Below, one piece after another: positions 9,083 through 27,604 of a stretch of 64,000 bases of DNA; position 1 is the stretch's first letter; each line of letters opens with the position of its first letter. A program made the translations under genes and the position numbers. Origin of the DNA: an uncultured Lachnospiraceae bacterium (GTDB lineage: Bacteria; Bacillota; Clostridia; Lachnospirales; Lachnospiraceae). The notes below the pieces were generated by a model. It worked only from the letters and a program-made list of their open reading frames with translations, was not told the origin of the DNA and ran no database searches. Where the stretch lies: positions 62,001-126,000 of the forward strand of contig CAOKWI010000001.1 of the NCBI GenBank assembly GCA_948473115.1, written 5' to 3'.

Positions 9083-11302
9083 ATGAGGACAAAGGCAGAG
9101 GGCAGAAGGGTTATAAAGAAAGCATGTAATATAATGTCGTATGAAGGGTTGAAGAAACTCTGGGAAAAGCACTGGAGGTTAGTGAGTGCAATCGTATTAG
9201 TGACAATATGTTTTTTATTATGGAACTATCAGAACCTGTCTTCTGGTTTGCTCCCTAAGCATGATGGATTACATGGAATTACTGCTTTTGCGACCAGTAT
9301 GCATTCTGTTCGAATAGACGGGGAAATTGCTTGGTGGTCTCCTGCTGATACGAGGACAGGCGGCTGGGCGCAATATTATTCTGGATTTTTATCACCACTA
9401 GCACCAACATATGGGAGTATATTATTTATTGCAGCGGCTTGTATTACGAAGCTTTGCAGTTTTTTTGGTGTAGTAATTCCAGAGTATCCTTTCTATATCT
9501 TGCTGAATAGCTATATTACTCCGATTTTAGCAGTGTTCTTTTTATTCAAATTTAGTTCATTTTTCTTGAAAAACAAATATTCGTATATTTTATTAGGGGG
9601 GGGGTATATTCTCTCAGGGATTGGTTTACAGATTGATTCCTGGTATTATTGGCAGGATCAGTTTTTCCTGTGGCTATTCCTATACGGAGTAATTGGTATT
9701 TTGGAGGAGGCAAATAGCAGAAGATATTATATTTTCTGTGCTTCAATATTGTGTTTTTTCTCATCAGCTAATTATTGGACGCTTCACAATCTGCTTTTTA
9801 TCGCTTGTGTACTTGTGCTGTATCTGTTTACAATACAGAATATGCGAGACAGGATTAAGAAAATATTTACAATTATTAGAGAAAATAAGATAATTACTTT
9901 TCTTTTGGTTTTGTGTCTTGCAATTTGGGCACTTATCCTTGTGAGCGTATATTTAGAACAGCATTCAGTTTATAGCCGCGGGAGTGATTATTCTATCGAC
10001 AGTATGTTGGTCAGAGCAAAAGGTGGGAATCCGATTCAACTTTTAGTAAATGAATTGTTTGATCCGATTATTGGTGGATTTGGTAATGAGAATATGAATA
10101 CTATCCATAATGCTCGATATGTGGGGGCAATGTTATTGCCTCTCATAGTAGTTGCGTTTCAGCGCAGAGGAGGAATATTTCATAAACTGTGCATTATGCT
10201 GTTTGGTATTTGCCTTATGCCAGGTTTTTTGTTGCCAATATGGCAAGTGTTTTTTCGGTTTGATCAACATTATTTCTATTTTTACAGTCATTTTTGGGAA
10301 ATATCAGTACTTTTGCTGGCAGCTGATTCTTTTGACGCATTTTTGGAAGGTGAAAATGCTCGTGTGGGGAAAAGCCTAAAGATTATTCTTGCTATTGCAG
10401 CGGCGGCATTTCTGGTGTTCACATATAAAGACACGGGACTTTCAAGAGCAGTGCCGCTGATGCTGTGTTTGATTGTGCTTTCCTGCATTATCTTATTAAA
10501 ATATATGGAGCAATCGGGAAAAGTATGGCTGTTTCTTTTTTTGATATTATTCTTGGGAGATATCTCAAGATACTATTATGAAGGTTCTGCGGCGGATCAT
10601 CAGTTTACTGTTACGTATTTTCCGCGGACGGGTGAGGGTGATGAGAGATTATATGAGCCCTTTGAAAGAGTGGAGAATAACACATTTTCTCAGGGATTGA
10701 AGGAAAATTCACCACCAGTTACTAATCATATATGGCCATATAATGAATATATTCTCTCTGTTTCATATTACCAGATGTTGGCGGAATACATGGAGGACTC
10801 AAACTTCATAGAACGAGTGGATTATTCTTTTGGGGACGGGCAGGATTTACACTTCTATACAGAACTTAGTCAATATGACGGAAATACGGTTTCTTTAATA
10901 GAAAACCGAGTGCCAGAGGCTGAATTTGCATTTACAGAATATGGATACAATGACTTTACTGTACAATGTAAAATGCCTCAGAATGGCTTTGTTGTATTTA
11001 ATCTGCAATATGATCCCCACTGGAGATTGAAGATTGACGGACAGAAAGTGGAGGTTTGTAAGGCTAATATAAATTATCTTTCGATAGAGTTGGCAGAAGG
11101 TAGTCACACAATCGAACTGTCGTACAGACCTTTAGCAAGAGTGTTGTATCCGTTCGCTGTTATGTTGCTGGCAGGATTGATAGTATATGTGCTTATTAGA
11201 TTGAGAAGGAAAGGATTTGACAATGAAAGTTGTAATACTGGCAGGAGGATTTGGTACGCGAATCAGCGAGGAAAGTCACCTGAAACCCAAACCGATGATT
11301 GA
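9083..11302 (+). CDS. YfhO-family membrane glycosyltransferase, paralog 2 (contains G9 tract)
   Basis: 739-residue polytopic membrane protein. An early outside loop (LLPKHDGLHGITAF, WWSPADTRTGGWAQYYSG) is followed by about 12 membrane segments, an outside domain ending in LQYDPHWRLKIDG (equivalent to the YPGWKVYVDG motif of paralog 1), and a last helix VMLLAGLIVYVLI. Start 9083 has AGGAG about 12 bases upstream, rather far; ATG 9134 is an alternative. A run of nine G at 9596-9604 sits in frame (LLGGGYI), so the gene reads ON here. The last ~26 residues are encoded in the overlap with rfbF (80 bases in a different frame) and look non-conserved, so the family part effectively ends near RLRRKGF. 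Confidence 0.82.
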   Translation: MRTKAEGRRVIKKACNIMSYEGLKKLWEKHWRLVSAIVLVTICFLLWNYQNLSSGLLPKHDGLHGITAFATSMHSVRIDGEIAWWSPADTRTGGWAQYYSGFLSPLAPTYGSILFIAAACITKLCSFFGVVIPEYPFYILLNSYITPILAVFFLFKFSSFFLKNKYSYILLGGGYILSGIGLQIDSWYYWQDQFFLWLFLYGVIGILEEANSRRYYIFCASILCFFSSANYWTLHNLLFIACVLVLYLFTIQNMRDRIKKIFTIIRENKIITFLLVLCLAIWALILVSVYLEQHSVYSRGSDYSIDSMLVRAKGGNPIQLLVNELFDPIIGGFGNENMNTIHNARYVGAMLLPLIVVAFQRRGGIFHKLCIMLFGICLMPGFLLPIWQVFFRFDQHYFYFYSHFWEISVLLLAADSFDAFLEGENARVGKSLKIILAIAAAAFLVFTYKDTGLSRAVPLMLCLIVLSCIILLKYMEQSGKVWLFLFLILFLGDISRYYYEGSAADHQFTVTYFPRTGEGDERLYEPFERVENNTFSQGLKENSPPVTNHIWPYNEYILSVSYYQMLAEYMEDSNFIERVDYSFGDGQDLHFYTELSQYDGNTVSLIENRVPEAEFAFTEYGYNDFTVQCKMPQNGFVVFNLQYDPHWRLKIDGQKVEVCKANINYLSIELAEGSHTIELSYRPLARVLYPFAVMLLAGLIVYVLIRLRRKGFDNESCNTGRRIWYANQRGKSPETQTDD
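9596..9604 (+). repeat. Poly-G run, 9 G, in-frame (ON)
   Basis: Nine consecutive G inside the YfhO paralog 2 gene, coding GGG in ILLGGGYIL within a membrane segment. Loss or gain of one G would truncate the protein within a short distance. Candidate slipped-strand site. Confidence 0.9.
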
Positions 11303-11999
11303 GATCGGAGAGAAACCTGTTCTATGGCATATCATGAAGGAGTACTCCTATTATGGGTTTAATGAATTTATTATCTGCTGCGGATATAAGCAGCACGTTA
11401 TAAAAGAGTGGTTTGCTGATTATTACCTTCATAATAGCGATGTCACTTTTGATTTTGCCCATTCGGGAGAGATGACTGTCCATAATAACGTGTCGGAACC
11501 CTGGAAGGTCACTTTGGTAGACACTGGACTGAATACAATGACGGGAGGACGCGTTAAGAGAATTCAAAAGTATGTAGGTGATGAAGCATTTATGCTTACT
11601 TACGGGGACGGAGTAAGCGATATCAACATTCAGGAGCTGGTGAAGTTCCATAATTCTCACGGGAAAATGGCGACGTTGACAGCAGTGAATGTGGGACAGA
11701 GGTTTGGTGTATTGGGAATTGCGGAGAATAATTCGATTACTTCATTTAAAGAAAAAAGCGCAAGTGATGGAAGCCGCATTAATGCAGGATATATGGTTCT
11801 GGAACCGGAAATCTTCCGCTACATTGAAGGAGACCGGACAGTGTTTGAGAAAGAGCCGCTCGAAACGGCTGCCGCAATGGGTGAGTTGGTGGCATATAAA
11901 TATGACGGCTATTGGCAATGTATGGATACAAAGCGGGAAAAGGATACCTTGGAGGAATTGTGGGCATCCGGGAATGCACCGTGGAAAAGTTGGGAGTAA
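11223..11999 (+). CDS. rfbF: Glucose-1-phosphate cytidylyltransferase
   Basis: Makes CDP-glucose from CTP and glucose 1-phosphate, the first step of the CDP-sugar pathway, in the cytoplasm. 258 residues, the normal length. The nucleotide-binding signature LAGGFGTRISEESHLKPKPM is at residues ~5-24, with TYGDGVSDINI (metal-binding Asp) near 125 and AGYMVLEP near 185. ATG 11223 is chosen over the upstream TTG at 11217 because of AGGAAAGGA just before it. The gene starts inside the 3' end of the previous one. With rfbG at 17485 it supplies CDP-4-keto-6-deoxyglucose. Confidence 0.96.
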   Translation: MKVVILAGGFGTRISEESHLKPKPMIEIGEKPVLWHIMKEYSYYGFNEFIICCGYKQHVIKEWFADYYLHNSDVTFDFAHSGEMTVHNNVSEPWKVTLVDTGLNTMTGGRVKRIQKYVGDEAFMLTYGDGVSDINIQELVKFHNSHGKMATLTAVNVGQRFGVLGIAENNSITSFKEKSASDGSRINAGYMVLEPEIFRYIEGDRTVFEKEPLETAAAMGELVAYKYDGYWQCMDTKREKDTLEELWASGNAPWKSWE

Positions 12000-12007
12000 A
12001 GAAAACA

Positions 12008-12808
12008 ATGACTAGTAAAGAACTGGCAAACAGACTGCGGGTGCATACCGTAGAAATGGCACACTATTCCAAAGAATCCCATGTTGCTTCCGCACTTTCC
12101 ATATGTGATATTGTGGCGGTGCTATATCACGATGTTTTGCGGAAAGACCCTATGGATGCAAAATGGGAGGAGAGAGATCGCTTTATTTTAAGTAAGGGAC
12201 ATGCTTGCTCTACAGTTTATGCTGCCTTGGCAGAAACAGGCTTCTTTAGTGTAGATGAATTGAATACGCAGTGTCAGGATGGAAGCAGATTGTCGGGGCA
12301 TATCACGTATAAGAATGTTCCGGGAGTGGAATTATCGACAGGCTCATTGGGACATGGCTGCTGTGTGGCGGCAGGGATGGCATTGAATGCAAAGTTAAAG
12401 GGAAAAAAATACAGAACTTTTGTGCTTGTCGGAGACGGGGAGTGTGATGAAGGCTCGGTTTGGGAGATGGCGTTATTTGCGCATCAGTATAAATTGGGGA
12501 ATCTGACTGTTGTTGTGGATCATAACAAGATGCAGGCAATGGGGTTTTGCAAGGACATCGCCGATCATGTTAATTTAGCTGATAAGTGGCAGGCGTTTGG
12601 GTGGGAAGTGATAGAGGTTGACGGCCATGACCATGGGCAGTTAAGTATGGCTTTGAACAAACGGGGAACGGAAAAGCCGGTGTGTGTTGTAGCCCATACG
12701 ATTAAGGGCAAAGGCGTGACCTTTATGGAAAATAATCTGCTGTGGCACTACAGGGATCCGCAGGGAGAAGATTATGAAAATGCTTTACGGGAATTGAGGG
12801 CACAATAA
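12008..12808 (+). CDS. Transketolase-like N-terminal (ThDP-binding) subunit, polysaccharide locus copy
   Basis: Thiamine-diphosphate binding half of a split transketolase, 266 residues. GHACSTVYAALAETG, a GSLGHG block and the ThDP/metal motif GDGECDEGSVWE are clear, and HTIKGKGVTFME closes the fold. The start at 12008 follows GGGAG; the open frame reaches back into rfbF. The stop overlaps the start of the C-terminal subunit (TAATG), so the two subunits are co-translated. A second transketolase pair lies at 60068-61854 with the pentose genes. This copy sits between rfbF and rfbG, so it probably transfers a two-carbon unit onto a CDP-linked keto sugar or makes a sugar precursor. That role is inference. 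Confidence 0.88.
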   Translation: MTSKELANRLRVHTVEMAHYSKESHVASALSICDIVAVLYHDVLRKDPMDAKWEERDRFILSKGHACSTVYAALAETGFFSVDELNTQCQDGSRLSGHITYKNVPGVELSTGSLGHGCCVAAGMALNAKLKGKKYRTFVLVGDGECDEGSVWEMALFAHQYKLGNLTVVVDHNKMQAMGFCKDIADHVNLADKWQAFGWEVIEVDGHDHGQLSMALNKRGTEKPVCVVAHTIKGKGVTFMENNLLWHYRDPQGEDYENALRELRAQ

Positions 12809-13746
12809 TGAAAAAGGCGCTGATAAATGCGGTATGTAATTTGATGGATGAGAATGAAAATGTCTATATGTTTACGGCAGATTTAGGCTATGGTGTAATG
12901 AATAACATTATAGAAAATTATTCGGAAAAATTTGTCAATATGGGAATCTGTGAACAGAATATGGCTTCGACTGCGGCAGGAATGGCTATGGAAGGCAATA
13001 TTGTATTTATGTATTCTATTGGTAATTTCCCGACACTGCGCTGCCTGGAACAAATCAGAAATGACATAGCGTATCATTGTGCAAATGTTAAGATTGTTGC
13101 CGTTGGAGGCGGGTTTGCGTATGGTAATTTGGGCATGAGCCATCACGCAACAGAAGATATTGCCGTGATGCGTGCGATTCCGGGGATGACTGTTTTTTCG
13201 CCGGCAGACTCGTCCGAAGTGACGGCTGTGGTTAAAGAAGCTGCAAAAATTGATGGACCAGTATATATAAGATTGGGGCGGGGCGGAGAACCTGATGTCG
13301 CACATATTTCACTTGACATTAATAAGGTTATGCGGATAGCAGAGCGGGAAAGTGATAGCATGAAACCGTCCATAGCATTGCTGGGAACGGGAACGGTAGT
13401 AGCGGATGTGGCAGATGCGTCGAAACAACTTAAAGAAACCTACAATGTATCTGCGTATTCGATTCCCAAATTAAAACCCATCGATATGGATGGGGTGTTA
13501 GAGATTTGTAAGTCAAATGACTGTGTTGTTACCGTGGAAGAGCATAATATAGTTGGAGGCCTGGGGAGTGCAATAGCGGAAGTGATTGCAGACAATAAAG
13601 TGGGAACAAGGCTTATTCGGATTGGGATGAATGATCAATTTACACAGGTTGTAGGATCACCTGATTACCTTCGACATTACTATGGATTGGATTGTGCAGG
13701 GATCGTAGAGAAGCTTCACAAAATTTATGAGGTGGAGAATGATTAA
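12808..13746 (+). CDS. Transketolase-like C-terminal (pyrimidine-binding) subunit, polysaccharide locus copy
   Basis: Second half of the split transketolase, 312 residues. The catalytic Glu region is NMGICEQNMASTAAGMA near residue 48; YIRLGRGGEP and VTVEEHNIVGGLGSAIAE mark the Pyr and C-terminal domains. It shares the TAATG junction with the N-terminal subunit and runs 8 bases into the following SDR gene, showing tight co-expression. Compared with the central-metabolism copy at 60910 the GYGVMNNIIENY region replaces LAAATKTSIFRK, as expected for a different acceptor. The substrate is unknown. Confidence 0.88.
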   Translation: MKKALINAVCNLMDENENVYMFTADLGYGVMNNIIENYSEKFVNMGICEQNMASTAAGMAMEGNIVFMYSIGNFPTLRCLEQIRNDIAYHCANVKIVAVGGGFAYGNLGMSHHATEDIAVMRAIPGMTVFSPADSSEVTAVVKEAAKIDGPVYIRLGRGGEPDVAHISLDINKVMRIAERESDSMKPSIALLGTGTVVADVADASKQLKETYNVSAYSIPKLKPIDMDGVLEICKSNDCVVTVEEHNIVGGLGSAIAEVIADNKVGTRLIRIGMNDQFTQVVGSPDYLRHYYGLDCAGIVEKLHKIYEVEND

Positions 13747-14668
13747 GGTTATTGTTACTGCGGCGAATAGTTTTATTGGACGCAGGTTATGCAAGGCATT
13801 GACAGATGCAGGATGTTTCGTATATGCGGTGGTACGAAATACCTTTTCGGATGAGAAAATGTTTTATGATCATGAGAACTTGTCTGTTGTCTATTCAGAT
13901 ATGGAAGACTATCAGTTCCTTTATCAAAAAATTCAGGATTCCTGTGATATAGGAATAGCGTTGGCCTGGAATGGAACAAGAGGAAAAGAACGTGATGACA
14001 GGATACAGCAGGAATGGAATTACAGAAGATCCATTGATTGTGTGCGTGGTTTTATTGAAAAGAATTGTAAATTGATTATGACAGCAGGATCACAGGCTGA
14101 ATACGGTCCGCGCAGAACAGCTGAAAAGGTCAGGGAAACGGATGCGTGTAATCCAAATACAGAGTATGGACATTATAAACTGAAATTTTATCTTGACACA
14201 CTGGAATTATGTAAGAAGTCTAATGTCAGATTGATTGAGCCGAGATTTTTCAGTTTATATGGGGCGGATGACTCTGATAAGACCATGATCATCTCTATCA
14301 TTCGCAATATGCTGCAAAATGCTCCCTGCGAGTTGACGCGCTGTGTTCAGTTATGGGATTTTTTGTACATCGATGATGCGATAAATGCATTATTGAGATT
14401 ATTGCAGAATGAAAATGCACAAGGTGTTTACAATTTTGGATCAGGAATATCACGCCCGCTGAAGGATTATATAGAGATAATGTATGATCTGACAGAAAGC
14501 AGAAGTCAGCTTTTGTATGGAGCGGTTGAATATCCGGAGACAGGAATGGTTCATACAAATCCCTCAATTGCGCGGCTGCGTGAAGCTATTGACTGGGAGC
14601 CGCAGATATCTTTTGAAGAGGGAATTCGAAGAGTGATTGAGTTACAGAGGCATTATCAGGAGGGATAG
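13739..14668 (+). CDS. Extended SDR (NAD-dependent epimerase/dehydratase) of the CDP-sugar cassette
   Basis: 309-residue nucleotide-sugar epimerase/reductase. The Rossmann motif is VTAANSFIGRRL, with Ala in place of the first Gly of the usual TGAxGFIG. TAGSQAEYG and YGHYK (the YxxxK catalytic pair) are near residues 118 and 144; YNFGSGISRPLKDYIE is the typical C-terminal substrate region. Start ATG 13739 lies 8 bases inside the previous gene behind GAGGTGGAGA. Between rfbF and rfbG it is likely to reduce or epimerise the 4-keto group of the CDP-6-deoxy sugar, perhaps after the transketolase-like step. Exact product unknown. Confidence 0.85.
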   Translation: MIKVIVTAANSFIGRRLCKALTDAGCFVYAVVRNTFSDEKMFYDHENLSVVYSDMEDYQFLYQKIQDSCDIGIALAWNGTRGKERDDRIQQEWNYRRSIDCVRGFIEKNCKLIMTAGSQAEYGPRRTAEKVRETDACNPNTEYGHYKLKFYLDTLELCKKSNVRLIEPRFFSLYGADDSDKTMIISIIRNMLQNAPCELTRCVQLWDFLYIDDAINALLRLLQNENAQGVYNFGSGISRPLKDYIEIMYDLTESRSQLLYGAVEYPETGMVHTNPSIARLREAIDWEPQISFEEGIRRVIELQRHYQEG

Positions 14669-15607
14669 ATGAAAAAAATCAGTATCGTTGTGCCATGCTT
14701 TAATGAGGAGGAAAATGTTGTACCCATGAGTGTGGCCTTAACTCAAGTGATGCAGGATGAATTAAACAGTTATGACTATGAGATTATTTTTATTGATAAT
14801 TGTTCAAGCGATAACACTCGCAATCTACTGGTGGAATTATGCGGTAAGGATAAAAAGATAAAAGCTATTTTTAACGCCCAAAATTTTGGCCCGATGAATT
14901 CGCCTTATTATGGACTATGTCAGGCTACAGGTGATTGTGCTATCCTATTTTGCTGCGATTTTCAAGATCCGATTGAACTGATTCCACAGATGGTAAAAGA
15001 ATGGGAGGAAGGATACAAGATTGTATCTTGTATAAAAACGAGTAGTAAGGAAAACCGGATTATGCGGTTTTTGAGGACAATATATTATAAGCTGATCCGC
15101 ATGATGTCCAGTGTGGAGCAGATTGAGCATTTTACCGGATTTGGTTTGTACGATAAAGATTTTTTGACTATATTAAAAGAGTTAAAAGACCCGGCACCCT
15201 TTCTACGGGGGATAGTGGCCGAACTGGGGTTTCGCCGTAAAGAAATTCCGTATCAGCAGCAAAAGCGCAGGGCTGGTAAGAGCCATCTGAGTTTTTACAC
15301 CTTGTATGATACGGCAATGCTGAGTTTCACAAGTTATACAAAAGTGGGTTTACGTGCGGCTGTTTGGGGGGGGGCTTTTTTATCGATAATTAGTTTGGTT
15401 GTGGCATTGATTTATTTGATATTGAAACTGATTTATTGGGATCGGTTCGTGGCGGGTATGATGCCGATTTTGCTGGGAGTTTTCATTTTAGGGTCAATCC
15501 AGATTTTCTTTATCGGGCTACTGGGCGAATACATTATGAATATCAATACCAGAGTGATAAATCGGCCTTTGGTAATTGAGGAAAAACGAATCAACTTTGA
15601 TGAGTAG
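14669..15607 (+). CDS. GT2 polyprenyl-phosphate glycosyltransferase (GtrB/CsbB/ArnC-like), contains G9 tract
   Basis: 312-residue membrane-associated GT2 enzyme that attaches a sugar from a nucleotide donor to undecaprenyl phosphate. The GT2 fold starts with ISIVVPCFNEEENV; the DNCSSDNTR and CCDFQDP (DxD-like) blocks follow, and GKSHLSFYTLYD leads to two C-terminal membrane helices (residues ~228-255 and 265-290). Together with YfhO paralogs and GtrA at 25711 it fits a three-component glycosylation system. Start 14669 follows GGAGGGATAG and begins immediately after the previous stop. A G9 run at 15366-15374 lies in the first membrane helix (AAVWGGAFLS) and is in frame here. Confidence 0.92.
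   Translation: MKKISIVVPCFNEEENVVPMSVALTQVMQDELNSYDYEIIFIDNCSSDNTRNLLVELCGKDKKIKAIFNAQNFGPMNSPYYGLCQATGDCAILFCCDFQDPIELIPQMVKEWEEGYKIVSCIKTSSKENRIMRFLRTIYYKLIRMMSSVEQIEHFTGFGLYDKDFLTILKELKDPAPFLRGIVAELGFRRKEIPYQQQKRRAGKSHLSFYTLYDTAMLSFTSYTKVGLRAAVWGGAFLSIISLVVALIYLILKLIYWDRFVAGMMPILLGVFILGSIQIFFIGLLGEYIMNINTRVINRPLVIEEKRINFDE
15366..15374 (+). repeat. Poly-G run, 9 G, in-frame (ON)
   Basis: Nine G at the start of the first C-terminal membrane helix of the GtrB-like enzyme. A one-base change would keep the catalytic domain but remove both membrane helices. Confidence 0.9.
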
Positions 15608-17473: not shown

Positions 17474-17484
17474 GAGATATAAAC

Positions 17485-18582: not shown

Positions 18583-21274
18583 GTGTGTATTAAAATGAAA
18601 AAGCATATAGGGGTGATTTGTGTCATCTTAGGAATGGTATTATTTATACACCATCCTATCATTACGTCACAATCCATGGCAGTACAGGGAGACGGGTTAA
18701 TGTACTATTTGTCGAAGGTGTTCTGGATAGACAGTTTAAAGGGAGGGGAATTCCCTTTATGGAATCCTTTTTCGCAAATTGGCACACCTTTTTTGGCAGA
18801 TACACAGCAAACTGTACTTAGTCCTTTTAACATACTGTATTTTTTGTTTGATACAACAACTGCCTTTAATTTGACCCGTCTTATATGTCTTTTAATGGCA
18901 GGATGCTTTATGTATTTATTAATGTATGAATTAACGAAAAAGTATGTAAGCAGTGCTGTAATAGGACTGCTTTTTGCACTTAGTACAATGTTAAGCGGAC
19001 ACAGGATTGAACATGTAACAATTGTTACAACAATATGTTTTTTCCCGGCAATTTTTTGGACCATAGAAAAGTTCAGAACATGTAAAAGCAGGAAATGGCT
19101 TATTTTTACGGCTGTTTTGATGGCGTTTCAATTTTTAAGTGGATTTACACAATTGGTACTTTACTTTGATATAGTGATTTTTTTCCGGATGATTTATGTA
19201 CTTAAACAAACGTGCACCAGATTAAAGGAGGCATTGGTTTTATGCATAAAATGGATTTTGCTATATCTATTGTTCATTTCCTGTCAGCTTTTGCCAACAA
19301 TACAATTAATTTTGTCCTCCGGTAGAAATGATATTTCTTGGGAGACTTTTGCTGTATACGGATGTGACTTGAGAGTGCTGCTAATGATGCTTTTTCCTTC
19401 AGTATATTTTGATGAATTCCAGGCGTTTGGATTATATGCATCTTCTGGTTTGGATATTGAAATATATATTGGAGTTATATGCTTGGTATATATTTTCTTC
19501 GAGGCAATATATTGCAGAAAAGAAAGAGAAGTAAGGAGTATCGGAGCGCTTGCAGTGGGGTGTTTTCTATATGCCATGGCACCTAATGTCCCTATATTGG
19601 GAAGGGTAATATATTCAATACCTATATTGAATTCTTTCCGAGTGTGTGCGAGGAGTCTTCCAATTTTTGTTTTTCTGATCATGATAATTACTGGTATTGG
19701 ACTGGCACATATAAGTGACAGTGAAGATGCTTCTAAAATTATGAAAGTTAACGTAGCTTTAATGGCTTTTGGCTTATTTGCTATGGTGTTTTGGTATTGT
19801 GTATCATCACAACAGGTTTTTCTAAATGAGTATGCAGATTATTATAAAAACGTGAGACAAGGAATTGCAATTTCGTTAGGCTTACTCATGATACATTTCA
19901 TTTTATTATGCTTTTTGGAATGGGCAAAGAAGAGAAGAAAAATAGTATATATGGCGGAAATAATATGTGGTATTATTGGTCTGTTTATAATATCGGACGT
20001 CATGCGATTTAGTATACTTTATAATGAGCAGATGAGGCCTGTGCAGACCATATTGAATAATGGTTTACCTGAAGAAGTACAGGCATTAGTGGATAAAGAT
20101 ACAGAAGACGGATACAGGTCATTTGTTATAATGAATGATCCGGATTTTTTCTATTCTACTGATACTTTCAATATAGCAAAATACGGCAGATCAATTAGCA
20201 GTCACAATAATATGTACAATGCCTGGTTGACATTTTTGGATAAAAAGTTGGATTATTGGGGAATAAAGGAAAATGTATTTTATCCTCATTTTACGGAAGA
20301 ACTTACTGAAAACCCTTCCTTAGCAGCAATGCTTAGTATACATTGTATCTTATCTGCTGGAGATTATGATTTGAATCCTCAAATCATAAATGATTCAATA
20401 GATGGGGAAGTGCTCTTGGCAGATGATGCAATTGAGTTTGTAGGAGATAATGATTTGTTATATTATGCTTCAACTGCGGACTGGGTTGAGGAATATACAT
20501 CCTATTTAGTTACCTTTGATGCGAATGTAACAAATGAAGATATTTTTTATGCTGACTTATATAACGATAATTATGACAATGTAGAGCAAGATGGTTTCTT
20601 TGTGAAAGATACTTGGGGGGGGGGGGCAAATATATAGAACAATAATTACAACAGAGGAAATTCCTGATAATGATATTTATTTTAGAATTCTAGCATCAGG
20701 AGAAAATGATTTGAGTAGTGCGAAGGTAGAAATAAAAAAAATAGAATTAGATGAATTAGAAATTTATGAAAAAATTTGGTCGGGAAATGACATGGTAGTA
20801 TATGCCAGCGATCACGCTCGGAAAATAGTATATATACCTGAAAAAGCAGAGTATATTGCAGAATATGGTGAATCCTGGAAAGCCGATGAACTGAATAATG
20901 CTGACAAAATAAGCTATGTTTTAGGATTGGATAAGAGTATTGAATTTAACGGTTATAATGCAACAATCACAGGAATCACACAGAAAAGAAATTCTGTTTC
21001 TGCAATCATTCGAACAGATGAGGATACATTTGTTAATCATGCCCAGCTTGCATACCCAGGATGGACAGCGTATGTTGACGGACAAAGAGTAAAATTGTAT
21101 ACTGTAAATAACTTAATACAGGGAGCAATTGTTCCAGAAGGAGAACATATAATAGAATTTCGCTATGAACCTATAGTTTTTAAGATAGGGTGCGTTTTAT
21201 CAACATTGGGAATTATATTTGCTTGTGTATGGTGGGGGAAATTATATACAAAACAAAGACTAGAATGTGTGTAG
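18583..21274 (+). CDS. YfhO-family membrane glycosyltransferase, paralog 3, phase-OFF by a G12 tract
   Basis: A YfhO-type gene split by a frame change at a run of 12 G (20615-20626). The first part (684 codons, stop TAG at 20635) has a dozen membrane segments and the loop GGEFPLWNPFSQIG. The second part continues in the next frame to 21274 and ends with LAYPGWTAYVDGQRV and a last helix. Removing one G joins them without a gap: the restored segment aligns with paralog 1 around its VTFSFICPNASSEI region. The joined protein would be about 896 residues, close to the 918 of paralog 1. Translation may start at GTG 18583 or ATG 18595. As written the protein lacks its outside domain. Confidence 0.85.
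20615..20626 (+). repeat. Poly-G run, 12 G, out of frame (OFF)
   Basis: Twelve G inside YfhO paralog 3. With 12 the frame meets TAG nine bases after the run; with 11 (or 14) it runs on for a further 214 codons to 21274. Confidence 0.93.
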
Positions 21275-21361
21275 TTTTTGATCTGAGATTATTGCAAGAT
21301 GGATGAACTTATGCGGGGAAAACAGTAGCGTCGAATCAGTTTATATAAATGGGAGCGTGGA

Positions 21362-22549
21362 ATGCAGTCAAGTTGGCTTATCATCGGAGGCAATTTCCTG
21401 CTCGGCAGCAGGATCCTAAAAATATTGAAAAGAAAACATAAAGCCATTGGTGTGCCGCATGAGGAGATGGATGAACCGGAGCGGGTCGTGGGATTAGCCC
21501 TTTTTAACAAAATGGGGGGGGTGCTAATTGAATCGGAGTGTCTGACAGCCGGAAATGATATGGATTCCATGCGGGATAATATGGAAAAGGTGATTGGCTT
21601 TTGCCGTGAGAGCCAACGGGAATGTATATTTGTACAAGTGCAGTATCCGGCAGGATGCGACCCTGAGTCAGACTTGTATCATCGATACTGCACGGCCTGC
21701 GAGAATATTGCGCAAATGGTGGAAACAGTATTTGTAGTGCATTCGGTATACGAGGATGGCAGTTCGGAAATACAGGCGGGAAAAGCCGGAGAAACCCATT
21801 GCGCAGATGTGGCGGCCTTGTACATTGAACAAAATATTGGACGACATGGGATAATACCAGTCTGCAATGACAGCGGCGTTGATGAACAGGAAGTAATAAA
21901 GCGTCAGAGCAGATGTGTGTTTCAGCTGATTTATGAGTTGAAGGCACAAGATTTTTTTTACGAAAAGCGCGTCGCGGAGATAAGGTTTCAAATGGGGGAA
22001 AGACTGGCAAAGGCTGTTCCCCATCAGGTGGCGGCACAGCTCGACTGCGTCTGCCCCGTCCCCAAGACGGGAATGTATTATGCGATGGGACTGGCGCACG
22101 GGTTAAAGTGCTCCTATGTTCAGGCACTGCTCAAAACAGGCGGGGAGGAGAGATCCTTTCAGATTGCAAACACAGACAAGAGAAAGCAGTTTTTGTGGAC
22201 AAAGCTACAGCCGATAAAGGAACTGATTCAGGGAAAAACGTTAGCGGTGGTAGATGAAGCGATCTTTACCGGTGCAACACTAAAGGTGGTTGTGGAAATG
22301 CTGCGCGAGTGCGGAGCAAAAGGCGTATATTTGTGCATTCCGACTCCGAAATGCCGCAGCCATTGTAATTACCTGATGCAGCCGCCGAGACCCATGCTTC
22401 TGGAATACATCAGGGAGACCATGCTGGAGGGGTACTTTAACGTGGATGGGATTTTCTTTCAGGACGATGATGTGTTTAGACAGTGCATAATGGAGATAGA
22501 TGGACAGATGTGCAGTGAGTGCTTTTTGGGAGGTGATCGAGATGAATGA
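21362..22549 (+). CDS. PurF-like phosphoribosyltransferase fused to an N-terminal Rossmann-like domain
   Basis: 395-residue protein with an unusual build. Residues ~1-170 resemble a shortened nucleotide-sugar SDR (WLIIGGNFLLGSRILK, VFVVHSVYEDG) without a YxxxK pair. From ~185 it resembles the phosphoribosyltransferase half of amidophosphoribosyltransferase: CPVPKTGMYYAMGLAHGL, the PRPP loop VVDEAIFTGAT near residues 297-307, ECGAKGVYLCIPTP, and a C-terminal QMCSECFLGG. The glutaminase domain of PurF is absent. Start 21362 follows GGGAG. A G8 run at 21514-21521 is in frame. It overlaps the next gene by 8 bases, so it belongs to the cytidylyltransferase/aldolase cassette. Substrate unknown. Confidence 0.72.
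   Translation: MQSSWLIIGGNFLLGSRILKILKRKHKAIGVPHEEMDEPERVVGLALFNKMGGVLIESECLTAGNDMDSMRDNMEKVIGFCRESQRECIFVQVQYPAGCDPESDLYHRYCTACENIAQMVETVFVVHSVYEDGSSEIQAGKAGETHCADVAALYIEQNIGRHGIIPVCNDSGVDEQEVIKRQSRCVFQLIYELKAQDFFYEKRVAEIRFQMGERLAKAVPHQVAAQLDCVCPVPKTGMYYAMGLAHGLKCSYVQALLKTGGEERSFQIANTDKRKQFLWTKLQPIKELIQGKTLAVVDEAIFTGATLKVVVEMLRECGAKGVYLCIPTPKCRSHCNYLMQPPRPMLLEYIRETMLEGYFNVDGIFFQDDDVFRQCIMEIDGQMCSECFLGGDRDE
21514..21521 (+). repeat. Poly-G run, 8 G, in-frame (ON)
   Basis: Eight G in the N-terminal domain of the PurF-like gene (KMGGVLI). Shorter than the others, so a lower expected slippage rate. Confidence 0.75.
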
Positions 22550-23216
22550 AACTGGAAAGACTGTCACTGCGGTGGTGCCTGTGAGAAAGGAAGACTCCCG
22601 CCTGGTCGATAAAAACATATTGCCTTTTGGGGAGAGTAATCTTTTGCTTCATAAGCTGCAGCAGCTGAAAGCGACGGAGCGCATTGACAGAATTGTTGTG
22701 TCTTCGGAAGATGACGAGATTCTGGATATGGCCGAAGCGGCGGGGGTACAGGCGATGAAAAGACCTCGGGAGTATGCGGATAGAAGGAATCCTTTCGGGC
22801 GATTTGTAGAGTATATGTGTAATCAGATAAGCGGGGAACATGTGCTGTGGGCATGTGTGACGGCGCCTTTTGTCGAGAGCGGCATGTACGGGGAGGCAAT
22901 CGGGACGTATTTTGACAAGCTAGAGGAAGGCTATGATTCCCTGATTTCTGTCCTGAGGTTGAAGCGTTTTATTTTGGATGAAAACGGCGCCGTCAATTTC
23001 AGGCGGGGGCTTCAGCATAAAAATTCGGAGGAACTGCCTGATCTGTATCTCTACACAAACGGTATCGTGTTGGCGCCGAGAGAAAAAATGATAGAATGGA
23101 AATACAATTGGGGCTACATCCCTTATCGTTATGAGATTGATAAAAAGGCGGGAATAGATATCAGCGACTCCTATGACTATCATATAGCCTGCCTGCTTGA
23201 GGAGGAAAACAAGTGA
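22542..23216 (+). CDS. Acylneuraminate cytidylyltransferase-like protein 1
   Basis: 224-residue nucleotidyltransferase resembling CMP-sialate synthetases. TAVVPVRKEDSRLVDKNILPFG carries the family's substrate-binding R/K pattern, followed by DRIVVSSEDDEIL and YTNGIVLAPRE. Start ATG 22542 is preceded by GGGAGGTGAT and lies 8 bases inside the previous gene. It is a close paralog of the gene at 24222 (shared NKNILPFxESNLL, YADxxxPFG, LDENGxxNFRRG). The stop overlaps the GTG of the aldolase gene (GTGA). It probably activates an acidic or unusual sugar with CTP. Confidence 0.82.
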   Translation: MNETGKTVTAVVPVRKEDSRLVDKNILPFGESNLLLHKLQQLKATERIDRIVVSSEDDEILDMAEAAGVQAMKRPREYADRRNPFGRFVEYMCNQISGEHVLWACVTAPFVESGMYGEAIGTYFDKLEEGYDSLISVLRLKRFILDENGAVNFRRGLQHKNSEELPDLYLYTNGIVLAPREKMIEWKYNWGYIPYRYEIDKKAGIDISDSYDYHIACLLEEENK

Positions 23217-24232
23217 ATGTGAAATTATTGGACTGTACTCTTCGGGACGGCGGCCATGTCAACAATGCCGATTTCGGAGGCGAAAGGATTCGCGGCATTA
23301 TCCGTGGATTAACGGCAGCCGGAATGGATTATATTGAGCTTGGATTCCTCAGGGACGGACAGTTCAGCCCCGACCAGGCTCTATATAATGATGTGACTGA
23401 AATTTATCCGTATCTGCCGGACAATGGGGGAAAAAGTAAGTATACAGTGATGGTCAGACCTGATTGGTATGATATCGGGCAGCTTTCGGATTCGGAAGGC
23501 AGGATAGAGATTATTCGTTTTGCATTTTACTACAGAGATATAGAGTTGACGCGGGAATATGCGCGGATTGCTGAAAGAAAAAAATACAGCTTCATATGTA
23601 ACCCGGTCAATATAATGGGATATTCCGATACGGATTTACAGGAGCTTGTCCGGCAGATCAATGATATGCATCCGGAGCAGCTTACCATGGTGGACACCTA
23701 TGGTTCCATGACCATTAAGGATCTGCATCGCATTTATGAAATCATAGAGAGCGGGCTCGACCGTGATATACGAATAGGCCTGCATTTGCATGAGAATCAA
23801 TCTCTTGCGTTTGGTCTTGCCCAGGAATTCCTGCGGATCAGGGAGAAAGACAGAAATGCGGTGATAGACGGTTCGCTGTTGGGAATGGGGCGTATTCCGG
23901 GTAACCTGTGCATAGAGATTATTTCGGAATTTATGAATAAGCAATATGGCTGCAGTTATGATAATGATATCCTCTATAATCTGATCGGGGAATATATTGA
24001 GCCGATAAAGCGGGAAATACCCTGGGGGTATTCTCCGGCATACTTTATGACGGCACAGCTGAACATGCACCGCTCTTATGCGGAGTTTCTTTTAAAGAAA
24101 AAGGAATTTGATTTATATGATATCAGCCAGATTTTAAAGAGTATCGAATTGCCTATGAGAAGTGAATTTCACAACGATCATTTAGAGGAAAAATGTGAGA
24201 CATACCGGCGGAGGAAGACAGATGGAAAATGA
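23213..24232 (+). CDS. DRE-TIM (HMGL-like) metallo-aldolase
   Basis: 339-residue TIM-barrel enzyme of the HMG-CoA lyase/4-hydroxy-2-oxovalerate aldolase class. The metal and catalytic motif LLDCTLRDGGH is at residues 4-14, a mid-barrel VDTYGSMTIKDLHRIYE block follows and the metal-binding pair HLHENQS is near 192. GTG 23213 follows GAGGAGG and overlaps the previous stop. It lies between two paralogous cytidylyltransferases, so it is likely to build or cleave a C-C bond of the sugar acid they activate. Similar aldolase-cytidylyltransferase pairs occur in other surface-glycan loci; I know of no proven reaction. Confidence 0.85.
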   Translation: MNVKLLDCTLRDGGHVNNADFGGERIRGIIRGLTAAGMDYIELGFLRDGQFSPDQALYNDVTEIYPYLPDNGGKSKYTVMVRPDWYDIGQLSDSEGRIEIIRFAFYYRDIELTREYARIAERKKYSFICNPVNIMGYSDTDLQELVRQINDMHPEQLTMVDTYGSMTIKDLHRIYEIIESGLDRDIRIGLHLHENQSLAFGLAQEFLRIREKDRNAVIDGSLLGMGRIPGNLCIEIISEFMNKQYGCSYDNDILYNLIGEYIEPIKREIPWGYSPAYFMTAQLNMHRSYAEFLLKKKEFDLYDISQILKSIELPMRSEFHNDHLEEKCETYRRRKTDGK

Positions 24233-24920
24233 AATGAAGATTACCGCAGTAATTCCGGTAAAGGGAGACAGTTCGCGTCTGAAAAATAAAAATATTCTGC
24301 CTTTTGCAGAATCCAATCTGCTGATCCATAAGATACGGCAGTTAAAGCAGGTAGAGGAGCTTGCTCAGATCATTGTGTCATCGGATTCGGAAGAAATGCT
24401 TGAGATGGCGAGAGAAGAAGGCGTAGAGGCGATAAAGCGTCCTAAACAGTATGCGGATGAATCTCAGCCCTTTGGCTATTTTTTAGAGTATATCTGTGAC
24501 ACGATCAACACGGAGCATTTAATGTGGGCATGCTGTACATCGCCTATGGTAGAGCCTGAATTATACAGAGAAGCAATCAGGAAGTACAGGGAGGGTCTGT
24601 TGGCGGGATATGATTCTTTGATTACCGTGCAGAAATATCAGCATTTTCTGCTGGATGAAAACGGCCCGATGAATTTTCGCAGGGGGATAGCACATGTTAA
24701 TTCTCAGGATTTACCGGTATACCATTACTTCACAAATGGTATTATCCTGGTTCCCCGGGAGAATGTCAGAAAGTGGAAGTACCATTTCGGTCCCCGGGTT
24801 TATCGCATGGAAATAGCCCAGAATGAGTCCATAGACATCGACACCTATTATGATTATGTGATCGCTAAGGCCTTTTATGAGGACAGGCAAAAAACTGATT
24901 GGGGGGGGGGTAAAGACTAG
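24222..24920 (+). CDS. Acylneuraminate cytidylyltransferase-like protein 2, with C-terminal G10 tract
   Basis: 232-residue paralog of the enzyme at 22542, in the same cassette. TAVIPVKGDSSRLKNKNILPF, QIIVSSDSEEML and FTNGIILVPREN are shared. Start 24222 follows GGAGGAAGACAG and overlaps the aldolase by 11 bases. The C-terminus (DWGGGKD) is encoded by a run of ten G at 24901-24910 immediately before the stop. With 9 G the protein would gain a tail of about 18 residues and end at TGA 24967, overlapping the kdsB start; with 11 G it would stop directly after the run. The catalytic fold is upstream of the run in all states. Confidence 0.82.
   Translation: MENEMKITAVIPVKGDSSRLKNKNILPFAESNLLIHKIRQLKQVEELAQIIVSSDSEEMLEMAREEGVEAIKRPKQYADESQPFGYFLEYICDTINTEHLMWACCTSPMVEPELYREAIRKYREGLLAGYDSLITVQKYQHFLLDENGPMNFRRGIAHVNSQDLPVYHYFTNGIILVPRENVRKWKYHFGPRVYRMEIAQNESIDIDTYYDYVIAKAFYEDRQKTDWGGGKD
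24901..24910 (+). repeat. Poly-G run, 10 G, at the end of a cytidylyltransferase gene
   Basis: Ten G just before the stop of the second cytidylyltransferase. Length changes alter only the tail and the distance of the stop codon from the kdsB start. Confidence 0.9.
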
Positions 24921-24965
24921 CTCTTTATTCTCTGCTGTGTATGCCGTAATGTGCAGGGAGGCGGC

Positions 24966-25718
24966 ATGATGAAAGTTGTAGCGGTCATCCCTGCGAGATA
25001 TGCTTCCACGAGGCTGCCGGGAAAGCCTCTTAAAGATATCTGTGGCAAGCCTATGGTGTGGTGGGTCTACAGTAAAGTAAAATCAATTGAAGGCATAGAC
25101 CGGGCGGTCGTTGCAACGGACGATGAAAGAATTTACAGGGTATGCAATGACTATCATATCGATGCCGTGATGACTGCGGATAACCATCCGACGGCAATTC
25201 ACCGGTTATATGAGGTTGCGGAAGCGATTGGCGGGGATATATACTTACAGGTCAACGGCGACGAGCCTCTCATCAATGAAGGGATATTATCAAAATTTGT
25301 GGAAGAGATCAGAAAGGCTACCTTGGAAGGGGCATGCGGCATGAACGCTATCTCCGCAGTGACCGATCCTGTGCAGGTGATGGATCCTGCCAATATTAAA
25401 ATGGTTTTTAACGAGGAGCTTGAATGCTGCTATATGTCCCGAGCGCCAATTCCCTTTCCGTTCAAGTCACTGGATTATCAATACTATAAGCACGTCGGAT
25501 TGATAGCGTACACAAAGGAGATGCTGCGCTTTTTTACCGTGACCTCACCGGGATATTTTGAGCGGGTCGAGGGCATCGATCTATTGAGATTTATTGATTA
25601 CGGGAAAAGGCTTCAACTGATAGATGTAGGACAATGTGAGACATTGTCTGTTGACACGGAGAAGGATCTGGAGATGGTGAGAAGGAAGATGGAACGGAAG
25701 GTAGAAGAGAATGGATGA
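24966..25718 (+). CDS. kdsB: 3-deoxy-manno-octulosonate cytidylyltransferase-like protein
   Basis: 250-residue cytidylyltransferase of the KdsB type, making CMP-Kdo or a related CMP-ulosonate. VVAVIPARYASTRLPGKPL is the family signature, NGDEPLI the metal/CTP site, and SRAPIPFPF, YKHVGLIAYTKEMLRFF and EGIDLLRFIDYG match KdsB throughout. Two start codons lie in tandem (24966 and 24969) behind GGGAGGCGGC. Kdo is usually a Gram-negative sugar, and no kdsA or kdsD homolog is in this window, so the true substrate may be another 3-deoxy-ulosonic acid, perhaps made with the aldolase at 23213. Confidence 0.9.
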   Translation: MMKVVAVIPARYASTRLPGKPLKDICGKPMVWWVYSKVKSIEGIDRAVVATDDERIYRVCNDYHIDAVMTADNHPTAIHRLYEVAEAIGGDIYLQVNGDEPLINEGILSKFVEEIRKATLEGACGMNAISAVTDPVQVMDPANIKMVFNEELECCYMSRAPIPFPFKSLDYQYYKHVGLIAYTKEMLRFFTVTSPGYFERVEGIDLLRFIDYGKRLQLIDVGQCETLSVDTEKDLEMVRRKMERKVEENG

Positions 25719-26199
25719 GGTCTTACGTCATGTTATCGTTAAAGTCTGTAAACTGTTTAAAGCGGACATTTCGGATGCTTCTGTAAGTAACCTGGTGCAA
25801 TTTGTCAAATTTGGTCTTGTGGGGATATCCAATACAGTGATCAGTTATGTATTGAATGTTATCACACTGCTTTTGCTGAAGCCGTTTCAGGCAGGGTGGG
25901 ATTATATAGCGGCCAACCTGGTGGCTTTCGGGCTGAGTGTCTTATGGTCGTTTTACTGGAATAACCGCTTTGTGTTTACGACAGAAAAGGGAGAACACAG
26001 ATCTGTTTTTAAGACCCTGGTGAAGACATACATTTCATACGGGTTTACGGGAATCGTCTTAAATAACATCTTATCCTGGCTGTGGATTGAAAAGCTGGGA
26101 ATCTCTAAATTTGCGGCGCCTCTGATTAACCTGATTGTCAGCGTACCTCTTAATTTCATAATCAATAAGTTATGGGCGTTTAAGGCAGAAAAGAAGTGA
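25711..26199 (+). CDS. GtrA-family small membrane protein
   Basis: 162-residue protein with four membrane segments; GtrA/GtcA proteins are thought to flip undecaprenyl-phosphate sugars. VQFVKFGLVGISNTVISYVLN and FYWNNRFVF are the family hallmarks, and FIINKLWAFK closes it. Start 25711 lies 8 bases inside kdsB. With the GtrB-like GT2 (14669) and YfhO proteins it completes a three-component glycan glycosylation system. Confidence 0.92.
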   Translation: MDEVLRHVIVKVCKLFKADISDASVSNLVQFVKFGLVGISNTVISYVLNVITLLLLKPFQAGWDYIAANLVAFGLSVLWSFYWNNRFVFTTEKGEHRSVFKTLVKTYISYGFTGIVLNNILSWLWIEKLGISKFAAPLINLIVSVPLNFIINKLWAFKAEKK

Positions 26200-26217
26200 G
26201 AAACGGAGGCTGATAGA

Positions 26218-27604
26218 ATGCATGTAAAAATTCAGAATTTTATTTTGCTGTGTATAAGTGTGCTGTTTTATGCAAGCTTTGGCGTAAAGCAATTACTGTT
26301 TCTTTTTCTGTGTATTATGATAACCTTTATCGGAGCGGTGATTGGGGAAAAGTACAATAAGAAATATATTTTGCTGGCGCTTACGGCGAACATTTCATTG
26401 CTTGTGGTGATGAAATATTTGCCTTTTTTCTATGCGAACATAGATGCTCTGTTCAAAAATGGGGGGGGGGGGTGAAACATCACAGCTTTTGCTGCCTGTA
26501 GGATTATCCTTTTATATTTTTCAAAGTTCATCTTATCTGCTGGACGTATATCATGGCAAAGTGCATGTTGAAACAAATATAGTTGATTATGCATTATACG
26601 TATCTTTTTTTGGAACTATTGTTTCAGGCCCCATTCAAAAGGCAAGGAATTTTTTGCCGCAAATAAAAGAAAAGAGAATCATTACCGATAAGGGAATCCA
26701 GAAAGCGGTTCTCTTCTTTTTGTGGGGAATTTTTATCAAAATGGTTATTGCAGACAGACTGACAATGTTTGTCGATACTGTGTGGAATTCGTATGAACAA
26801 TTTGAAGGTCTTACATTGTTTGCGGCGGCGGTGGCATATAGTATTCAAATATATCTTGATTTTTCGGGATATAGTTATATGGCTGTGGGAGTATCTGCTT
26901 TGTTTGGATTTACGCTGACGGAGAATTTCCGGCAGCCTTATCTTGGAATAACTATAGGTGATTTCTGGAAGAGATGGCATATCAGCCTGACGGAATGGTT
27001 TAGAGAATATTTATACATCCCTTTAGGAGGAAACCGGAGGGGGTCGTTTAGAAAATATATGAATATGATTGTTGTTTTCCTGGTCAGTGGTTTATGGCAC
27101 GGCGCGGAGTGGTCCTTTGTAGTCTGGGGAGGAATACATGCCGCCTATCACGTGGTCGGAAACCTAACTGAAAAATGGAGAATTGCATTGTGCGGCAGGT
27201 TAAAAATAAATAGAGAGACTTTTAGCTATGGTTTGTGGCAGAGGCTGTGTGTCTTTTTGATGGCAGCCTTTGCGTGGATATTCTTCAGGGCGCCGACCTT
27301 GGGAGATGCGTTTGGATACATAAAGGGTATGTTTTCCTGCTGGAATCCGTGGGTGTTATTTGATAAGTCATTATACGCTTTAGGCTTGGCAAAGGAGGAA
27401 TGGACCATCTGTGCCTGGGGGATGGTGATTGTTCTGATTACTTCCTATATCGAGGAGAAGGGAAAGCAGATAGGGGAAGTGTTTTGCCTTCAGAACATTG
27501 TTTTTCGATACTTATGCTATTTTGCCCTGTTTATGGCAGTGGCGATATTGGGAGTATACGGGCCGGATTATGATGCGTCGAAATTTATATATATGGGATT
27601 TTAG
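26218..27604 (+). CDS. MBOAT (AlgI/DltB-like) O-acyltransferase, phase-OFF by a G12 tract
   Basis: Membrane-bound O-acyltransferase gene split at a run of 12 G (26461-26472). The first part is 85 codons and ends with TGA directly after the run; the rest reads in the next frame to 27604. Losing one G gives one ~461-residue protein, the normal AlgI length, with the join producing GGGGETSQLLLPVG, followed by the family block SFYIFQSSSYLLDVY. FWKRWHISLTEWFREYLYIPLGG and the catalytic His in SGLWHGAEWSFVVWGGIH are intact. Start 26218 follows CGGAGG. In the ON state it would acylate (for example acetylate) the glycan with the SGNH partner at 27616. Confidence 0.88.
26461..26472 (+). repeat. Poly-G run, 12 G, out of frame (OFF)
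   Basis: Twelve G near codon 82 of the MBOAT gene, directly followed by TGA in the current frame. Eleven or fourteen G restores the full frame. Confidence 0.93.

What the first reader, a model, noticed from the sequence alone, without database searches (positions are those of the whole stretch)
9596..26472. Six coding poly-G runs point to multi-gene phase variation of a Gram-positive surface glycan
Runs of 9, 9, 12, 8, 10 and 12 G lie in six different genes at 9596, 15366, 20615, 21514, 24901 and 26461. All are on the coding strand, all are in the polysaccharide locus, and I found none of 8 or more elsewhere in the window. By base frequency alone one such run would be expected in 64 kb at most. 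Genes hit are two YfhO transferases, the GtrB-like lipid-sugar synthase, a PurF-like protein, a cytidylyltransferase and an MBOAT acyltransferase, mostly decoration steps. Slipped-strand switching of several genes would make many surface variants. Poly-G switching is well known in Campylobacter; I know of no described system of this kind in Lachnospiraceae.
Basis: partly seen in the sequence, partly recalled or inferred. Interest (0 to 1): 0.93.

Follow-up and report, generated by a model that had tools for sequence, protein, structure and literature searches.

The report
Poly-G switches in a glycan locus
Six genes of a predicted surface-sugar locus each carry a run of 8 to 12 G, and copies of three of them in close relatives stand in the opposite open-or-cut state, so the runs are likely on/off switches that would let one strain show many surface coats.

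Summary
In detail: six G runs (9, 9, 12, 8, 10, 12) lie in six genes, all on the coding strand, with no other G or C run of 8 or more in the window. Five runs of at least 9 G in 17 kb is far above the genome's own rate. As assembled, the second YfhO gene and the MBOAT gene are cut short at their runs; YfhO1, the GtrB-like gene and the PurF-like gene are open; the cytidylyltransferase run lies in the last codons. The protein database holds the opposite state for three genes: an intact copy 99.7% identical to the cut YfhO2, an intact 94% relative of the cut MBOAT, and a copy of the open GtrB-like gene cut exactly at the run. Same-genus genomes carry such runs in or before glycosyltransferase, acyltransferase, LicD and MBOAT genes. 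Unexpectedly, 39 of 397 family genomes, this one included, carry G runs between -35-like and -10-like boxes (72 matches at 59 sites; 1 control match), and three orthologous promoter pairs differ in run length. Slipped-strand phase variation is the best explanation; switching within a clone was not shown. The mechanism is known; ten literature searches showed no report in this group. The 8-G and 3'-terminal runs are weakest.

The parts
9083..11302 (+). YfhO-family membrane protein 1 (GT-C-like glycan transferase), 739 aa, frame open
   Evidence: PF09586 E=9.7e-15
9596..9604 (+). G9 run, codon 172 of YfhO1, open state
14669..15607 (+). GtrB-like lipid-linked sugar synthase (GT2), 312 aa, frame open; a 239-aa version cut at the run exists in the database (P0199)
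   Evidence: PF00535 E=8.6e-21; best NCBIfam match PgfS, below its cut-off
15366..15374 (+). G9 run, codon 233 of the GtrB-like gene, just before its hydrophobic C-terminal part
18583..20637 (+). YfhO-family protein 2, front part (684 aa) ending at a stop right after the run: closed state
   Evidence: intact 895-aa near-identical copy P0001
20615..20626 (+). G12 run in YfhO2
20627..21274 (+). rest of YfhO2 in another frame, intact; 217 of 217 residues identical to P0001
   Evidence: PF09586 E=1.9e-9
21362..22549 (+). PurF-like phosphoribosyltransferase-domain protein, 395 aa, frame open
   Evidence: PF00156 E=7.8e-8
21514..21521 (+). G8 run, codon 51 of the PurF-like gene; weakest of the six
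24195..24920 (+). CMP-sugar cytidylyltransferase (PseF-like), 241 aa; run in its last codons
   Evidence: PF02348 E=3.7e-14; TIGR03584 below its cut-off
24901..24910 (+). G10 run, codon 236 of 241; the three frames after it end at 24913, 24920 or 24969, the last overlapping the next gene
26218..26475 (+). MBOAT O-acyltransferase, front part (85 aa) ending right after the run: closed state
   Evidence: intact 94%-identical relative P0045
26461..26472 (+). G12 run in the MBOAT gene
26444..27604 (+). rest of the MBOAT gene in another frame, intact
   Evidence: PF03062 E=1.1e-27
25711..26199 (+). GtrA-like flippase, likely partner of the GtrB-like enzyme and the YfhO proteins; no run of 8 or more
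   Evidence: PF04138 E=3e-20
6180..8936 (+). third YfhO paralogue without a run (longest G run 5): internal control
   Evidence: PF09586 E=1.4e-12
11223..14668 (+). sugar-nucleotide block: glucose-1-phosphate cytidylyltransferase, two-part transketolase-like enzyme, epimerase; no run of 8 or more
   Evidence: TIGR02623 over cut-off
22500..25718 (+). second sugar block: two PseF-like cytidylyltransferases, HMGL-like aldolase, KdsB-like cytidylyltransferase

Best explanation
The poly-G runs of this locus likely are slipped-strand switches, the 8-G and the 3'-terminal run being least certain: the DNA polymerase would gain or lose G at a run during replication, which shifts the reading frame and would close or reopen a gene for surface-glycan synthesis or decoration. 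Shown here: the runs, the excess of runs of 9 or more G over chance, two genes cut at their run in this assembly, and the opposite reading state of three of the six genes in near-identical or closely related database sequences. Inferred: that slippage causes the differences, that it is reversible within one clone, and that the glycan changes. Three run-bearing genes (YfhO1, YfhO2, GtrB-like) belong with the GtrA-like protein to a lipid-linked-sugar decoration system of the CsbB/GtcA/YfhO type (recalled from Bacillus subtilis), and the MBOAT gene is a predicted O-acyltransferase, so the predicted outcome is decorated or undecorated surface polymer. The run at 24901 would only change a C-terminal tail or the coupling to the next gene. 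A second, transcriptional form of the same device, G runs in predicted promoter spacers, is present elsewhere in this genome and in part of the family.
For: Runs and excess. Frames. Opposite state, YfhO2: P0001, 895 aa, 678 of 680 residues identical before the run and 217 of 217 after it, one frame. Opposite state, GtrB-like: P0199, 239 aa, ends WGGLFYR; the window DNA read from the first G of its run gives GGGLFYR and a stop; an open form is found in 58 contigs (P0166). Opposite state, MBOAT: P0045, 94% identical, continuous 459-aa frame. The GtrB run is lineage-specific: in an 18-row alignment chosen by me, VWGG occurs only in the copies at 96% identity or more; the 11 rows at 75-89% have FLG, FGG, FFG, FAG or WAG there. 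Same-genus genomes carry runs in or before glycan genes; one, L180, is an acyltransferase split at the run with the same Pfam domain on both sides. Promoter form in 397 family genomes: 103 matches to 19 control (both hand counts; one of the 103 is the coding run at 9596), and 72 matches at 59 sites in 39 genomes to 1 control match; three orthologous promoter pairs keep the run at different lengths, G11/G10, G11/G9, G11/G10.
Against: No reads: run lengths come from assembled consensus, and homopolymers are error-prone. P0199 has a garbled stretch near residues 91-98 that looks like sequencing error in its 1.7-kb contig, so its cut could be error too. P0045 is only 94% identical. DNA of the other-state copies could not be fetched; the nearest MBOAT in the 79 other genomes is 47% identical. 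For runs of 8 or more the loosest nulls reach the observed count. MutS and MutL frames are present and long, so slippage need not be as fast as in bacteria lacking them. The 8-G run is near chance and the 24901 run cannot switch the enzyme domain. 22 of the 49 same-genus genomes searched have no run of 9 or more G (hand count), and 18 of 37 run loci examined by Pfam have no clear surface link.
Confidence: 0.8

Rival explanations
1. Sequencing or assembly error: the true run lengths keep all genes open, and the cut copies are artefacts of homopolymer miscalling.
For: All data are assemblies; P0199 shows other error-like changes; one poly-G at a contig tip of another genome (L166, 28 G) looks artefactual.
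Against: The window runs lie inside a 141-kb contig; the excess of runs does not depend on exact length; P0001 stands for 26 clustered sequences and P0199 for four; runs keep promoter geometry and recur in orthologues.
Confidence: 0.1
2. Gene decay: YfhO2 and MBOAT are pseudogenes on the way out, and the runs are incidental.
For: Both are closed in this assembly; the YfhO2 gene is rare, with no match at E 1e-60 or better in 396 other family genomes.
Against: The frame after each run is intact to the normal end; the YfhO2 remainder is 217 of 217 identical to the open copy; five runs of 9 or more cluster in one locus.
Confidence: 0.05
3. Frame correction by the expression machinery: RNA polymerase or ribosome slippage on the G run makes some full-length protein whatever the DNA length, so the run is a constant low-level dial and not a switch.
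For: Long homopolymers are known sites of transcriptional slippage; a passage of PMC2831843 mentions it for poly-A tracts of Buchnera.
Against: A constant programmed shift predicts one conserved out-of-frame length; here open and cut forms coexist among close relatives. Not tested directly.
Confidence: 0.05

Closest known systems
Campylobacter poly-G contingency genes (PhasomeIt survey, PMC6321876, passages read)
   Same: G runs in open reading frames, on the coding strand, lengths peaking at 9-10, surface-modification genes, several per genome
   Different: Other phylum and envelope; genes are YfhO, GtrB-like, MBOAT and CMP-sugar enzymes; 15 runs of 9 or more here against about 25 per genome of 7 or more there (1944 in 77 genomes, cut-offs differ); MutS and MutL present here; a promoter-spacer form is prominent in this family
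Bifidobacterium breve G-tract pilus switch (PMC9187656, passages read)
   Same: Gram-positive gut commensal, intragenic G run of 11-12, open or closed by replication slippage, measured by deep sequencing
   Different: Sortase pilus genes and actinobacterial host; there length mixture was measured, here it is inferred
Neisseria-type homopolymer in promoter spacers, such as porA (recalled, no call)
   Same: Run between -35 and -10 boxes, length alters spacing; such sites occur in this genome at C18 and C22 and in 39 of 397 family genomes
   Different: The six window runs are not of this type; they lie inside coding sequence
CsbB/GtcA/YfhO lipoteichoic-acid glycosylation of Bacillus subtilis (recalled, no call)
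   Same: Same three protein families: GtrB-like synthase, GtrA-like flippase, YfhO transferase
   Different: No poly-G switching known to me there; here the GtrB-like gene and two of three YfhO genes carry runs

Membership tests
Poly-G slipped-strand (simple-sequence-repeat) phase variation | Homopolymer G run above the usual cut-off (7 or more G/C in PhasomeIt) in a gene or promoter | tested here: met
   Six runs of 8-12 G; cut-off from PMC6321876 passages
Poly-G slipped-strand (simple-sequence-repeat) phase variation | Run more frequent than chance | tested here: met
   Met for runs of 9 or more; for 8 or more the loosest nulls reach the observed count, and the 8-G run alone would not pass
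Poly-G slipped-strand (simple-sequence-repeat) phase variation | Run length sets open or closed reading frame | tested here: met
   Two genes closed, three open; sixth run is 3'-terminal
Poly-G slipped-strand (simple-sequence-repeat) phase variation | Different states or lengths among close relatives | tested here: met
   Three of six genes, at protein level; the other three were not searched in the protein database
Poly-G slipped-strand (simple-sequence-repeat) phase variation | Reversible switching within one clone | not testable with these tools
   No reads or cultures
Poly-G slipped-strand (simple-sequence-repeat) phase variation | Genes affect surface structures | tested here: inconclusive
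   Pfam and NCBIfam assignments point to glycan synthesis; product not known; no background rate of glycan genes was computed for the genus set
Promoter-spacer poly-G switch | Run between -35 and -10 boxes | tested here: not met
   Window runs lie inside open frames; met at sequence level for two other runs of the same genome, C18 and C22
Invertible promoter (inverton) switch of capsule loci | Inverted repeats flanking a promoter | tested here: inconclusive
   In 5400-31400, arms of 16 or more within 3 kb: two imperfect pairs only (82-83%); one has its arms inside two genes and spans the 33-base gap before YfhO2, the other is a palindrome inside YfhO2; shorter repeats were not sought
Bifidobacterium pilus G-tract switch | Run in a sortase-dependent pilin gene | tested here: not met
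   Genes hit are not pilins

The most novel reading that the evidence does not exclude
This bacterial family has its own poly-G phasome: single strains switch several glycan genes independently by coding G runs, giving tens of surface coats, and a recurrent promoter design, TTGACA, about 9 bases, a G run, then the -10 box, switches transporters, LicD enzymes and secreted proteins by spacer length.
Probability: 0.6. Interest if true: 0.85.

Novelty: new member of a known kind. Interest (0 to 1): 0.72.

Why it matters
My impression, recalled, is that phase variation in gut commensals is mostly discussed as DNA inversion, and that poly-G slippage is known chiefly from Campylobacter, Helicobacter and Neisseria. 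If a major Gram-positive family uses it on its surface glycans, clonal populations would be mixtures of coats, which bears on phage resistance, antibody coating and strain-level metagenomics, and the run lengths could be read directly from existing sequence reads. A 2026 paper on Mediterraneibacter gnavus found its capsule promoter not bimodal (PMC13121745, passages), so a positive case in the wider group would be informative.

Tried and rejected
YfhO2 in 397 family genomes at E 1e-60 or better: only the window's own genome matched. PurF-like gene in 295 relatives at E 1e-30 or better: the window's own genome and three others, the three matched only over the second half, so the 8-G run could not be judged. 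MBOAT in 80 relatives: 66 match, the nearest outside this genome at 47%, so no close DNA relative was available; one homologue, in G028, carries its own in-frame G10 run (L164). An attempt to place the genome taxonomically through a named Butyrivibrio locus failed because the tool tells no kinship for such records. Single-strand folding around two runs showed nothing (z -0.54 and 0.47). Loss of mismatch repair as a cause is not supported: MutS and MutL frames of 902 and 704 aa are present. Invertible promoters are not favoured but not excluded: two imperfect inverted repeats only, one of them spanning the gap before YfhO2. The G9 run in YfhO1 is followed by TATATT, but I saw no -35 box at usable spacing by eye, so an internal promoter was not claimed. 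The promoter spacer median of 19, against 17 as the commonest value of 56 TTGACA-TATAAT matches of this genome, may partly be a selection effect of requiring 8 or more G; 13 control matches show that some of those 56 are chance. Literature: ten searches showed no report of poly-G switching in Lachnospiraceae or related Clostridia; listings were capped at 12-20 rows where up to 289 papers matched, and the library holds open-licence papers only. The 2025 review PMC11868660 has no occurrence of Lachnospir, Gram-positive, Firmicutes or poly-G (find).
Full report
Observation. All six G runs are present as described: 9596 (9), 15366 (9), 20615 (12), 21514 (8), 24901 (10), 26461 (12). No other run of 8 or more G or C occurs in the window; A and T runs stop at 8. 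Markov nulls of order 2 and 3, trained with the runs shortened, expect 0.05-0.07 runs of 9 or more G against 5 seen, and overpredict A and T runs of 8 or more; the order-1 null expects 0.47, at most 3. For 8 or more G the order-1 null expects 1.8 and once reached 6, the observed number. Keeping the proteins of 33 window genes and re-drawing synonymous codons gives 0.38 runs of 9 or more, at most 2 in 300 draws, against 4 seen in that set; for 8 or more it gives 0.74, at most 5, against 5. The genome (4.44 Mb, 143 contigs) has 15 runs of 9 or more, so five in 16.9 kb has p = 4.8e-9, a post hoc figure since the runs define the interval. Of the 49 same-genus genomes searched this one has the most; 22 have none (hand count).

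Genes. Pfam confirms YfhO (9083-11302 and the part after 20626), GT2 of GtrB type, a phosphoribosyltransferase-domain protein, a CTP-transferase and MBOAT. Neighbours are a glucose-1-phosphate cytidylyltransferase over its NCBIfam cut-off, a two-part transketolase-like enzyme, epimerases, a sulfotransferase, a GtrA-like flippase, PseF-like and KdsB-like cytidylyltransferases and an HMGL-like aldolase. This reads as a surface-polymer locus with a lipid-linked-sugar decoration module; the polymer is not known, and the part played by the PurF-like protein is unclear. A third YfhO paralogue (6180-8936) and a paralogue of the cytidylyltransferase (22500-23216) have no G run longer than 5.

State in the window. 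YfhO2 and MBOAT are closed: the frame entering the run ends within a few codons, while another frame continues intact to the normal end. YfhO1, the GtrB-like gene and the PurF-like gene are open. The 24901 run lies in codon 236 of 241; the three frames after it stop at 24913, 24920 and 24969, so it could alter a tail or the coupling to the next gene but not the enzyme domain.

State in relatives. A protein-database search with the front part of YfhO2 returned P0001, 895 aa, standing for 26 clustered sequences; it is 678/680 identical before the run and 217/217 after it in one frame. The MBOAT piece found P0045, 94% identical, 459 aa, matching the front piece at 75/84 and continuing through Gly-Gly-Gly. 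The GtrB-like protein found its own copy (P0165), an open copy in 58 contigs (P0166), one on a 32,902-bp contig, the same length as the contig of P0001 (P0167), and P0199, four clustered sequences, 239 aa, which ends WGGLFYR. The window DNA read from the first G of its run gives GGGLFYR and a stop. P0199 also has a garbled stretch near residues 91-98, so sequencing error in that contig is possible.

Age of the runs. In an 18-row GtrB alignment only the copies at 96% identity or more have VWGG; the 11 copies at 75-89% have other residues there. P0002, a 63% YfhO2 relative, has no glycine stretch at the site. These two runs therefore seem recent in this lineage; the other four were not examined this way.

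Other runs. I fetched 10 further regions of this genome and 46 from eight same-genus genomes and read 59 runs. The eight genomes were chosen because they have runs. Pfam on 40 proteins beside runs at 37 of those 56 loci gave 14 loci with a domain that I count as glycan-related, in or just after the run (two LicD, MBOAT, GT1, two GT2, pyruvyl transferase, three acyltransferase-3, GDSL hydrolase, epimerase, hexapeptide, CTP-transferase-like), three secreted proteins with Ig, fn3 or LRR domains and two ABC transporters. The remaining 18 are unlike or unknown: HisD neighbour, RsmF, a D12 DNA methyltransferase, a Myb/HTH-domain neighbour and an integrase-core (rve) neighbour, GGACT, BTAD, FkbH, TylF, DUF4956 and proteins without a hit or with only weak hits. 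No background frequency was computed. L180 is a clear closed case: the same acyltransferase domain on both sides of the run in different frames.

Promoter form. Many non-coding runs sit directly before a -10-like box. Among 58 runs of 9-14 G in the fetched loci, 10 are followed by TAWWWT or TANAAT, against 4 of 355 runs of 5-6 G (Fisher p = 9e-7). In 397 family genomes, G9 followed by TAWWWT gives 103 matches in 62 genomes against 19 for the reversed pattern (hand counts; one of the 103 is the coding run at 9596). TTGACA, 4-14 bases, at least 8 G, 0-6 bases, TANNNT gives 72 matches, 59 distinct sites, in 39 genomes against 1 control match. In 52 of the 59 the box follows the run at once; those spacers run from 12 to 28 with a median of 19, against 17 as the commonest among 56 TTGACA-TATAAT matches of this genome, for which the control gives 13. 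Two sites are in this genome, one before an ABC transporter. In a set of 26 such promoters chosen by me, three orthologous pairs keep the run at different lengths: ABC transporter G11 here and G10 in G038 (79% identical), an ATP-binding protein G11 and G9 (81%), LicD G11 and G10 (73% over 266 residues). By my reading of the N-termini, 12 of the 24 with a usable downstream frame precede a secretion signal; no predictor was run.

Mechanism. Slipped-strand mispairing at G runs explains all of this most simply. Mismatch repair genes are present, so rates may be moderate. Reversible switching in a clone, effect on the glycan, and benefit are inferred.

Comparison with the literature. The 2010 survey of 99 genomes found poly-G of 7-8 over-represented in only 9 genomes (PMC2831843, passages). 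Campylobacter shows the same coding-strand bias and lengths (PMC6321876, passages). The nearest Gram-positive case I saw is the B. breve pilus G-tract (PMC9187656, passages). In M. gnavus, the authors conclude that capsule genes are very rarely or not phase-variable under their conditions (PMC13121745, passages). Ten searches with capped listings showed no such report for this family; other papers were seen as listings only, apart from passages of PMC11868660 and PMC6437147.

Verdict. A real, unusual cluster, best explained as poly-G phase variation of a surface-glycan locus. The mechanism is known; the bearer and the scale in this group appear new.

Noticed in passing
G000:C18:19276-19307 and G000:C22:33910-33941 (L252, L036): G10 and G11 runs between TTGACA and TAAAAT/TAGAAT boxes in this same genome, the second before an ABC transporter; the same design occurs at 59 sites in 39 of 397 family genomes.
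   Followed up: partly
L037, L038, L039 (G000 C27, C48, C58): G9-G10 runs in the N-terminal part of secreted-looking proteins with fn3, Ig-like or LRR domains, two of them (C48, C58) near contig ends.
   Followed up: partly
L165 (G028:C6): In-frame G9 run in a D12-class DNA adenine methyltransferase gene; a possible switch of methylation and hence of many genes.
   Followed up: no
G065, G074, G052: Order-level relatives with 93, 29 and 19 runs of 9 or more G, above the other genomes of that search; some G065 matches lie at contig tips and may be artefacts.
   Followed up: no
window 21362-25718: Unusual sugar block: PurF-like protein, two PseF-like cytidylyltransferases, HMGL-like aldolase and KdsB-like enzyme; I recognise no known pathway.
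   Followed up: no
window 11223-13746: CDP-glucose synthase next to a transketolase split in two genes, suggesting a CDP-linked sugar made with a two-carbon transfer.
   Followed up: no
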